Assembly: GCA_937135955.1 (NCBI GenBank)
Contig: CAKZOB010000055.1
Span: 43,185-107,184, forward strand
From: an uncultured Anaerolineales bacterium
GTDB taxonomy: Bacteria > Chloroflexota > Anaerolineae > Aggregatilineales > Aggregatilineaceae
Direction of reading: 5' to 3'
DNA length: 64,000 nucleotides
The translations under genes were made by a program, and so were the position numbers. Numbering within the stretch: the stretch's first letter is position 1; every line of letters starts with the position of its first letter. The notes beneath the pieces were generated by a model, which made no database searches, was not told the origin of the DNA, and saw only the letters and a list, made by a program, of their open reading frames with translations. This document shows positions 61,303 through 61,730 of this stretch, in pieces.

Positions 61303-61343
61303 AATAAATCAAAACGCCCCACCGGCGATTGCCAGGTGGGGCG
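61303..61343 (-). terminator. intrinsic terminator of lysine attenuator 2 (nearest lysW)
   Basis: On the minus strand CGCCCCACC pairs perfectly with GGTGGGGCG (61335-61343 with 61315-61323), extended by an inner GGC/GCC. The run TTTTGATTTATT follows. It ends about 30 bases before the lysW start. Confidence 0.88.
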
Positions 61344-61388
61344 CTCTGAGCTAGGCGAAGCATCAAGCACACGACCGGCCAATCGCCG

Positions 61389-61439
61389 CTACGTGAGCAC
61401 CTCCTTCTTCGCCTTCTTGATGCACAGACCGAAAACCAT
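61389..61439 (-). CDS. lysine leader peptide 2 (16 aa)
   Basis: ATG at 61437-61439 to TAG at 61389-61391, encoding MVFGLCIKKAKKEVLT, with four Lys codons within five residues. GGGAGG lies nine bases before the ATG, just after the T tract of terminator 1. The bases right after its stop codon (61380-61388) are complementary, 9 of 9, to 61323-61331 in terminator 2. With one bulge the pairing extends to 61375 and 61335, reaching into the terminator's 5' arm. A ribosome finishing the peptide would cover this segment and let the terminator form. One stalled at the Lys codons would leave it free. Confidence 0.82.
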   Translation of the reverse strand: MVFGLCIKKAKKEVLT

Positions 61440-61456
61440 GGCAGTGTACCTCCCAA

Positions 61457-61480
61457 CAAAAAACCACCCTTGCGGGTGGT
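61457..61480 (-). terminator. intrinsic terminator of lysine attenuator 1 (upstream)
   Basis: On the minus strand ACCACCC-GCAA-GGGTGGT (7-bp perfect stem, tetraloop) is followed by TTTTTTG. It lies between the two leader peptides. Confidence 0.9.
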
Positions 61481-61545
61481 CGTTGGCTTTCAGGTTGGAG
61501 ATGTTGGCTCAGTCGCCAGCACGCAGCACCAAGCGAACCACCCGC

Positions 61546-61602
61546 CTATTCGGCGTTGGCCTTCTTGGACTTGGCGCGCTTGCTGACGAACAGTGCGATC
61601 AT
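61546..61602 (-). CDS. lysine leader peptide 1 (18 aa)
   Basis: ATG at 61600-61602 to TAG at 61546-61548, encoding MIALFVSKRAKSKKANAE, with four Lys and one Arg among residues 8-14. AAAGGGAT lies about nine bases upstream. The nine bases directly after its stop codon (61537-61545) are perfectly complementary to the 5' arm and loop start of terminator 1 (61472-61480), the pairing expected of an antiterminator that the terminating ribosome would mask. Confidence 0.82.
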   Translation of the reverse strand: MIALFVSKRAKSKKANAE

Positions 61603-61628
61603 GGCTGCTATCCCTTTCACCGAAGTTC

Positions 61629-61657
61629 AGAATACTGCCATCGAGGGCGGCAGTCAA
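61629..61657 (-). promoter_or_regulatory. sigma70-type promoter of the lysine operon
   Basis: On the minus strand TTGACT (61652-61657) and TATTCT (61629-61634) have a spacer of exactly 17 bases. Initiation near 61621 would place the ATG of leader peptide 1 about 20 bases into the transcript. Confidence 0.8.
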
Positions 61658-61730
61658 GTAGTTGGTTTTGTGGAGAATGACCAAAAATTCCACCCGGGGC
61701 CGCTGTCTGAGGCATTCTCGCAACGCCGGT

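What the first reader, a model, noticed from the sequence alone, without database searches (positions are those of the whole stretch)
61303..61660. Two tandem lysine attenuators, each with its own Lys-rich leader peptide, before the LysW operon
Between the promoter (61629-61657) and lysW there are two copies of the same plan: leader peptide, stop, terminator. The peptides are MIALFVSKRAKSKKANAE and MVFGLCIKKAKKEVLT, each with four Lys. Each is followed by a perfect-stem intrinsic terminator with a T tract (61457-61480; 61303-61343). In both, the bases immediately after the leader stop codon are complementary 9 of 9 to the following terminator hairpin (61537-61545 with 61472-61480; 61380-61388 with 61323-61331). 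A ribosome at the stop codon would hide that segment; one stalled on Lys codons would not. Classical attenuation logic therefore fits twice in series, which could give a steeper or wider response to lysyl-tRNA than one copy. Lysine biosynthesis is usually described as controlled by the L-box riboswitch or T-box. I know of no description of tandem leader-peptide control of a LysW operon.
Basis: partly seen in the sequence, partly recalled or inferred. Interest (0 to 1): 0.95.

Follow-up and report, generated by a model that had tools for sequence, protein, structure and literature searches.

The report
Double lysine-starvation switch before lysine genes
In front of a bacterium's lysine-making genes lie two switch-like elements in a row, each a short lysine-rich coding sequence followed by a stop signal for transcription, which are predicted to let the genes be copied only when lysine runs short; many related bacteria keep the same double arrangement, which would shut the genes off more tightly than a single switch.

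Summary
On the minus strand, between one promoter-like site and lysW, lie two units in series: a leader ORF with four Lys codons, a 9-nt segment right after its stop codon, and an intrinsic terminator whose 5' part pairs 9/9 with that segment. Of 115 scored lysW loci in the window's order, 105 have at least one such unit and 52 have two (27 of 42 genera); other residues, the reverse strand or shuffled DNA give at most 3 tandems. The antiterminator pairing covaries: native partners beat swapped ones in both units (0 of 20,000 permutations), controls are null. Folding of growing window RNA gives a switch (Lys-stalled ribosome: antiterminator; stop codon or no ribosome: terminator). No lysine riboswitch was found in 154 genomes of the order. 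Best reading: two leader-peptide lysine attenuators in series. The first terminator is weaker in 52 of 52 tandem loci. A single such attenuator is known from Thermus (recalled, not checked); I found no description of two same-signal ones in series, in an open-licence library only. No expression data exist. New variant of a known kind.

The parts
61629..61657 (-). sigma-70-type promoter-like site TTGACT-17-TATTCT
   Evidence: only promoter-like site in 60800-62200; a site of at least 9/12 lies within 110 nt upstream of leader 1 in 28 of 52 tandem loci, in 5 of 52 after mononucleotide shuffling
61546..61602 (-). leader ORF 1, MIALFVSKRAKSKKANAE, four AAG Lys codons, TAG stop
   Evidence: conserved in relatives
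61537..61545 (-). unit 1 segment 2 (GCGGGTGGT), directly after the stop codon
   Evidence: 9/9 complementary to 61472-61480
61472..61480 (-). unit 1 segment 3 (ACCACCCGC): pairs with segment 2 (antiterminator) or with the terminator 3' arm
   Evidence: swap test
61457..61481 (-). intrinsic terminator 1 (hairpin 61481-61462, dG -13.9 kcal/mol, T tract)
61389..61439 (-). leader ORF 2, MVFGLCIKKAKKEVLT, four AAG Lys codons, TAG stop
   Evidence: conserved
61416..61423 (-). unit 2 segment 1 (GCATCAAG, inside leader 2, includes a Lys codon)
   Evidence: exact complement of 61360-61367, read; locus-specific pairing only weakly supported in unit 2 (497 of 20,000 permutations)
61380..61388 (-). unit 2 segment 2 (CGGCGATTG), directly after the stop codon; in the aligned relatives also part of a small hairpin around the stop codon
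   Evidence: stop-codon hairpin 91.7% of cells paired in 22 sequences
61360..61367 (-). unit 2 partner of segment 1 (CTTGATGC)
   Evidence: read
61323..61331 (-). unit 2 segment 3 (CAATCGCCG)
   Evidence: 9/9 complementary to 61380-61388; covariation
61303..61349 (-). intrinsic terminator 2 (hairpin 61349-61309, dG -33.5 kcal/mol, T tract)
   Evidence: its stem covaries in relatives; not listed by the consensus scan
61087..61272 (-). lysW, first gene of the operon
   Evidence: TIGR01206 62.6 bits, cut-off 53.2
52319..61090 (-). rest of the operon in order: lysX, argC/lysY-type reductase, lysZ kinase, lysJ-type aminotransferase, homocitrate synthase, homoaconitase large and small subunit, homoisocitrate dehydrogenase-type gene, lysK-type [LysW]-lysine hydrolase
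   Evidence: NCBIfam scan and ORF list; the aminotransferase passes only the general argD cut-off, the dehydrogenase passes none, the small subunit was read from the ORF list only

Best explanation
Upstream of lysW lie two consecutive units, each a Lys-rich leader ORF, a pairing segment directly after its stop codon and an intrinsic-terminator-like hairpin, that likely act as two ribosome-mediated lysine attenuators in series. One transcript starts at the single promoter (inferred). In each unit a ribosome that finishes the leader would cover segment 2, so segment 3 joins the terminator and transcription ends. When lysyl-tRNA is short the ribosome would stall on the Lys codons, segment 2 would stay free and capture segment 3 before the terminator's 3' arm is made, and RNA polymerase would read on. 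With no ribosome the window's leader RNA is predicted to fold on itself and the terminator to form. Polymerase must pass both gates, so read-through would be the product of two probabilities: a much lower off state and a wider range, with only slight extra steepness. The anatomy, conservation, covariation and in-silico states are shown; stalling, termination and the lysine response are inferred.
For: Exact anatomy. One or more units in 105 of 115 scored lysW loci of the order, two in 52, in 27 of 42 genera; specific to Lys. Native 2:3 pairing beats swapped partners: unit 1 -20.7 vs -16.9 kcal/mol (14 loci), unit 2 -27.3 vs -22.5 (19 loci), 0 of 20,000 permutations each; control segments null. 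Same over one locus per genus for 27 genera (those units had been pre-filtered for complementarity). Alignment count for unit 2 (22 sequences): 87.9% of cells paired, 6 of 9 pairs with double-sided change, 0/500 shuffles. Window RNA ending at or just past segment 3: mean P(2:3) 0.86-0.96 with a ribosome on any Lys codon, 0.00 at the stop codon, 0.01-0.05 without ribosome. KK-to-stop distance is 4 codons in 15 of 19 unit-1 leaders; AAA and AAG interchange. No promoter-like site between the units in 52 of 52, though the gap is short. No lysine riboswitch in 154 genomes of the order. Where homocitrate synthase has its own upstream region it carries its own tandem in 3 of 7 loci, and in a fourth one unit plus a contig end inside the other; 23 copies that follow a long ORF have none.
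Against: No expression, 3'-end or ribosome data. On full-length RNA the terminator wins in every ribosome state, so the mechanism needs kinetic trapping; 2:3 fades as the 3' arm emerges (unit 1: 0.00-0.61 at 61463; unit 2: 0.05-0.81 at 61317 and 0.00 at 61314). In relatives 2:3 sometimes forms as well without a ribosome (stalled exceeds free in 16 of 19 and 21 of 24 loci, not in all), and two unit-2 loci (L005, L027) barely form it. The unit-1 alignment count gives 4 double-sided pairs, no more than shuffles (225/500), though the covariation score does exceed them (1/500). Unit-2 1:2 pairing is weakly supported. 53 of 115 loci have a single unit and 10 none (one of these with only 128 nt upstream), so two are not required. 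Three loci with a homocitrate synthase gene of its own upstream region show no unit. Relatedness of loci is not removed by the permutations.
Confidence: 0.87

Rival explanations
1. Only one unit (probably the second, with the stronger terminator) regulates; the other is a decaying relic of duplication.
For: 53 of 115 scored loci of the order have one unit, among them all 31 scored loci of one genus; in the window terminator 1 is much weaker than terminator 2 (-13.9 vs -33.5).
Against: Both units keep leader, pairing covariation and terminator over 27 genera; the weak-first, strong-second order holds in 52 of 52, which looks like division of labour, not decay; the two units are not interchangeable (cross pairing null).
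Confidence: 0.08
2. The leaders sense slow decoding or nascent-chain pausing at Lys runs (general translation speed, growth state) and not lysyl-tRNA charging.
For: Consecutive Lys codons can slow ribosomes by themselves (recalled knowledge); the data show only that Lys codons are conserved.
Against: The controlled genes make lysine, Lys far more than any other residue is enriched, and like leaders recur before homocitrate synthase in genomes where it stands apart, as expected for lysine sensing. AAA/AAG interchange argues against a codon-specific effect.
Confidence: 0.07
3. The units are not in series: terminator 1 ends an upstream transcript or a short RNA, and unit 2 is driven by its own promoter.
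For: Promoters of other types would not be seen by the scans; terminator 1 alone would suit the end of a small RNA.
Against: Distance from hairpin 1 to leader 2 is 22 nt in the window and 24.5 nt at the median, often too short for a promoter; 0 of 52 tandem loci have a promoter-like site there, against 28 of 52 in the longer stretch upstream of leader 1. Leader 1 is itself conserved and Lys-rich.
Confidence: 0.05
4. A lysine riboswitch or T-box controls the operon and the leaders are incidental.
For: T-boxes are common in this family: 8 hits in the window's own genome, four over the cut-off.
Against: No lysine riboswitch in 154 of 154 genomes of the order (stricter filters, weak ones could be lost) while 4 of 14 control genomes ring; none of the 8 T-box hits lies on the window's contig; Rfam at gathering scores finds only a TPP riboswitch in the window and nothing better than E 0.3 at the site.
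Confidence: 0.01

Closest known systems
Classical leader-peptide attenuators (trp, his, leu, thr operons of enterobacteria; recalled)
   Same: leader ORF with regulatory codons, mutually exclusive 1:2, 2:3 and 3:4 pairings, intrinsic terminator before the first gene
   Different: two complete copies in series for one amino acid; lysine as the signal; Chloroflexota; unit 2 adds a hairpin around the stop codon
Lysine leader-peptide attenuation of the Thermus thermophilus lysine cluster (Tsubouchi et al., J Biol Chem 2005; recalled, paper not held, nothing seen)
   Same: lysine signal, LysW/alpha-aminoadipate pathway, leader-peptide attenuation
   Different: as recalled a single leader peptide and attenuator; here two in series with a conserved weak-then-strong order. 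Not verified
Tandem attenuators of Salmonella mgtCBR (PMC3641672; abstract and passages read)
   Same: two short ORFs and two attenuation-type elements in one leader
   Different: they answer two different signals (ATP and proline-tRNA), additively; [quoted passage not shown] Here both units carry the same regulatory codon
Tandem T-boxes and tandem riboswitches (double T-boxes in Firmicutes, PMC9413887, passages read; metE tandem riboswitches, mentioned in PMC3641672)
   Same: two sensors in series before one operon
   Different: there the RNA binds tRNA or metabolite directly; here the ribosome on a leader ORF would be the sensor

Membership tests
Ribosome-mediated (leader-peptide) transcription attenuator | short leader ORF with several codons of the end product | tested here: met
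   four Lys codons in each leader; mean 4.2 and 4.5 Lys per leader over 52 tandem loci. Translation itself not tested
Ribosome-mediated (leader-peptide) transcription attenuator | intrinsic terminator between leader ORF and first gene | tested here: met
   predicted only; terminator 1, which did not list terminator 2
Ribosome-mediated (leader-peptide) transcription attenuator | alternative pairing 2:3 that excludes the terminator, conserved by covariation | tested here: met
   alignment count for unit 1 mixed
Ribosome-mediated (leader-peptide) transcription attenuator | 1:2 pairing between regulatory-codon region and segment after the stop | tested here: inconclusive
   unit 1: -22.2 vs -18.0, 1 of 20,000 permutations; unit 2: -15.4 vs -14.0, 497 of 20,000
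Ribosome-mediated (leader-peptide) transcription attenuator | read-through rises when the cognate aminoacyl-tRNA is short | not testable with these tools
   needs cells or in vitro transcription-translation
Two attenuators in series on one transcript | no promoter between the units | tested here: met
   0 of 52 tandem loci, simple sigma-70 consensus only, short interval
Lysine riboswitch (L-box, RF00168) | match to the covariance model | tested here: not met
   none in window at gathering score; 0 of 154 genomes, 4 of 14 controls ring
T-box (RF00230) | match to the covariance model at this locus | tested here: not met
   no match in window; 8 elsewhere in the genome, none on contig C55

The most novel reading that the evidence does not exclude
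An order-wide, ancient double gate: two non-interchangeable lysyl-tRNA sensors in series, always a weak terminator first and a strong one second, multiply their read-through so that an energy-costly ten-gene lysine pathway is almost silent in plenty yet fully open in starvation; the same double gate was copied to a second lysine operon when the pathway split.
Probability: 0.6. Interest if true: 0.8.

Novelty: new variant of a known kind. Interest (0 to 1): 0.74.

Why it matters
Leader-peptide attenuation is a textbook mechanism known mostly as single copies. Here two same-signal copies in series are found in 27 of 42 genera of one order, while others run on one, among them a genus with a single unit in all 31 scored loci. 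That natural contrast makes a concrete question testable: what does a second attenuator buy, range, steepness or noise? It also suggests that lysine control in this Chloroflexota order rests on leader peptides, while the window's family uses T-boxes elsewhere and no lysine riboswitch was found. If confirmed it supplies a natural 'double gate' for RNA circuit design.

Tried and rejected
Rejected: lysine riboswitch and T-box at this locus. Rejected: chance Lys-rich ORFs. Rejected, as far as sigma-70 consensus and a short interval can tell: a promoter between the units. Equilibrium folding of the complete leader was uninformative because the terminator always wins; truncated RNAs were used then. 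MAFFT alignments have a variable loop inside the unit-1 pairing, a misaligned unit-1 row (L018) and a misaligned unit-2 row (L023); all were kept in the counts, and the swap test avoids the problem. A covariance model of each unit found its own copy in the window's genome strongly (E 2.9e-17 and 2.0e-21) and beyond the two copies only weak matches (E 0.01 to 0.55), unexamined. R1 found 33 of 154 genomes of the order, under stricter filters, and few of the large divergent family. One search covered a pattern I made up as a crude T-box check; it is meaningless and is not used. A tree of lysX with unit number mapped on it was not made.

Selection to be aware of: the loci were chosen by a detector asking for a Lys-rich ORF and a terminator, not complementarity, but I had already seen the pairing by eye in some of the first family loci. 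The alignments leave out the two most divergent loci (L061, L075). The units, used, also had to show a 2:3 duplex of -10 kcal/mol or better. In one search I discarded one of 25 hits (L049) as spurious by eye. L012 is a tandem by eye but counts as one. Two of the 115 scored loci have under 350 nt upstream (L116 none, L174 one unit).

Full report
What is there. The window's minus strand carries a lysine operon of the LysW (alpha-aminoadipate) type: lysW, lysX, an argC/lysY-type reductase, lysZ, a lysJ-type aminotransferase, homocitrate synthase, homoaconitase, a homoisocitrate dehydrogenase-type gene (below its family cut-offs) and a lysK-type hydrolase. Between the only promoter-like site (61657-61629) and lysW (61272) lie two leader ORFs, each with four AAG codons, each with its own terminator-like hairpin and T tract. 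The plain consensus scan listed terminator 1 but not terminator 2, and expects 0.8 such sites by chance in that region; the weight therefore rests on relatives.

Source. The window lies in a 93-contig genome. The nearest named relatives are metagenome assemblies labelled Anaerolineales, Anaerolineae or Chloroflexi, with a few other labels such as Thermoflexus (lysX 95 to 68% identical), so this is very likely Chloroflexota. The unnamed-genome tool put 154 genomes in its order, 120 of them with lysX.

Conservation. In the first ten family relatives the same two-unit plan is visible by eye in eight, and one unit in two. In 72 non-duplicate loci (own, family and named genomes) a first detector found Lys-rich ORF plus terminator in 25, one of which I judged spurious; by eye 19 are tandem and 5 single. 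I then took the upstream stretch of lysX from 118 of the 120 order genomes; 115 could be scored. 105 have at least one unit, 52 have two, 10 none. By genus: 27 of 42 have a tandem locus, 40 of 42 any unit; one genus has a single unit in 31 of 31 scored loci. Among 51 loci from named records with no exact copy in that order set, 50 have none and one, labelled Ardenticatena, is tandem.

Controls. With the same rules but another residue, Arg gives 33 loci with at least one unit and none with two, Ser 25 and 3, Ala 18 and 1, Glu 14 and 1, the rest 11 or fewer with at most 1; the reverse strand gives 2 and 0, one dinucleotide shuffle per locus 0 and 0. The Arg count is partly expected because several leaders hold Lys and Arg together (inference).

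Leaders as coding sequence. In the 22-sequence alignment of unit 2 the only fully invariant leader positions are the first two bases of two adjacent Lys codons; the third varies between A and G. Over 104 leaders of tandem loci Lys codons are 361 AAG and 93 AAA. The distance from the last Lys pair to the stop is 4 codons in 15 of 19 hand-curated unit-1 leaders and in 8 of 24 unit-2 leaders, the other unit-2 leaders ending later. Where the stop lies further down, inside or past segment 2, a finishing ribosome would still cover that segment (inference).

Pairing. The main test swaps partners: does a locus's segment 2 fit its own segment 3 better than those of other loci? Unit 1, 14 loci after dropping near-copies: -20.7 against -16.9 kcal/mol; unit 2, 19 loci: -27.3 against -22.5; no permutation of 20,000 reached either. 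Leader-start segments, far-upstream segments and the other unit's segment 3 show no such effect. Over one locus per genus (27), where in many genera the whole stem has been replaced, the result is the same (unit 1 -21.3 against -15.5, unit 2 -23.8 against -18.4, 0 of 20,000), with cross-unit pairing null (these units had been pre-filtered at -10 kcal/mol). The permutations do not remove relatedness. Counts on MAFFT alignments agree for unit 2 (87.9% paired, 6 of 9 pairs with double-sided change, 0/500) and for its terminator (86.7% paired, 0/500), and are mixed for unit 1 (73.4% paired, 0/500; covariation score 1/500; but double-sided pairs 225/500). The 1:2 pairing is clear in unit 1 (1 of 20,000) and weak in unit 2 (497 of 20,000). 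Unit 2 also has a conserved six-pair hairpin around the stop codon (91.7% paired).

States. Complete leader RNA forms the terminator whatever the ribosome does. Growing RNA behaves as a switch: with the transcript ending at or just past segment 3, 2:3 pairing has mean probability 0.86-0.96 with a ribosome at any of the four Lys codons, 0.00 at the stop codon and 0.01-0.05 with none, in both units of the window (3' footprints of 10, 13 and 16 nt). It fades as the 3' arm emerges (unit 1 0.00-0.61 at 61463; unit 2 0.05-0.81 at 61317, 0.00 at 61314). Across the curated loci, stalled exceeds stop in 18 of 19 and 23 of 24 (stop position capped at 16 codons past the last Lys), and exceeds ribosome-free in 16 of 19 and 21 of 24.

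Series, not parallel. A sigma-70-like site lies within 110 nt upstream of leader 1 in 28 of 52 tandem loci (5 of 52 after shuffling) and between the units in none; that interval is short, 22 nt in the window and 24.5 nt at the median. Terminator 1 is weaker than terminator 2 in 52 of 52 (means -15.0 and -24.6). A toy model with illustrative numbers turns a 12-fold range into 144-fold and raises the effective Hill number only from 1.0 to 1.14.

A lysine regulon. Model R1 also hit places away from lysW. Of 30 homocitrate synthase loci examined (of 85 genomes with a match), seven have no long same-strand ORF ending within 140 nt upstream of the gene: three carry the tandem, one carries one unit and its contig starts inside the other, and three of one further genus have no unit by the detector. 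In the 23 others a long ORF ends 15 to 111 nt upstream, and they have none. A further hit precedes a lysZ-type gene.

Other regulators. The lysine riboswitch was not found in 154 of 154 genomes (4 of 14 controls ring; filters may lose weak ones). T-boxes are present in 18 of 18 family genomes, eight hits in the window's own, none on its contig.

Known work. From memory, Tsubouchi et al. (J Biol Chem 2005) described leader-peptide attenuation of the Thermus lysine cluster; the paper is not held under the ids I tried and three searches did not list it. Salmonella mgtCBR has tandem attenuators for ATP and proline, called by its authors a singular example for different signals (PMC3641672, abstract and passages). 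A study of Actinobacteria reports no conserved RNA structure before lysine operons there (PMC1262725, passages). Two leader peptides also occur before ermB (translational attenuation by a drug; PMC8274638, search listing only). Searches for tandem same-signal leader-peptide attenuators (titles and abstract starts seen) listed none for an amino acid; the library holds open-licence papers only, so this is weak evidence of absence.

Verdict. Two leader-peptide lysine attenuators in series, conserved in anatomy and pairing, predicted to be lysine-controlled; a new variant of a known kind.

Noticed in passing
L215 (same gene as L213), L217, L218, L216 (genomes G086, G074, G073, G085): A homocitrate synthase gene away from lysW carries its own tandem Lys-leader attenuators (three genomes); in L216 one unit is seen and the contig begins inside the other. 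Points to a lysine regulon when the pathway is split.
   Followed up: partly
L212:562-665: Attenuator-like remnants before a lone homoaconitase small subunit gene in a 77%-complete genome where no lysX was found; the second leader there has no Lys codon (by eye).
   Followed up: no
L210:3038-3171: Single Lys-leader attenuator-like element before a lysZ-lysJ-homocitrate synthase cluster, with what looks by eye like a tRNA gene between.
   Followed up: no
L099-L104 and L106 (genomes G132, G053, G081, G067, G146, G133, G139): lysX is 68-74% identical to the window's although most other members of their families are at 50-64%; suggests that the operon with its leader moved horizontally between families.
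   Followed up: no
L162-L164, L168, L170, L176-L178, L180, L183-L205 (genus g46): All 31 scored loci of this genus have one Lys attenuator only; a natural single-gate comparison.
   Followed up: partly
L075: Record labelled Ardenticatena, lysX only 57% identical: tandem Lys attenuators with unrelated stems.
   Followed up: partly
window 3995-4105: TPP riboswitch, 65.8 bits, not related to the finding.
   Followed up: no
window 61731-63620: Gene upstream of the promoter: HExxH metalloprotease-like protein with a choice-of-anchor J-like domain, both below curated cut-offs.
   Followed up: no
own genome contigs C52, C19, C79, C73, C9: Eight T-box hits in the same genome, four over the cut-off: T-boxes are used elsewhere in the genome beside the leader-peptide attenuators here.
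   Followed up: no
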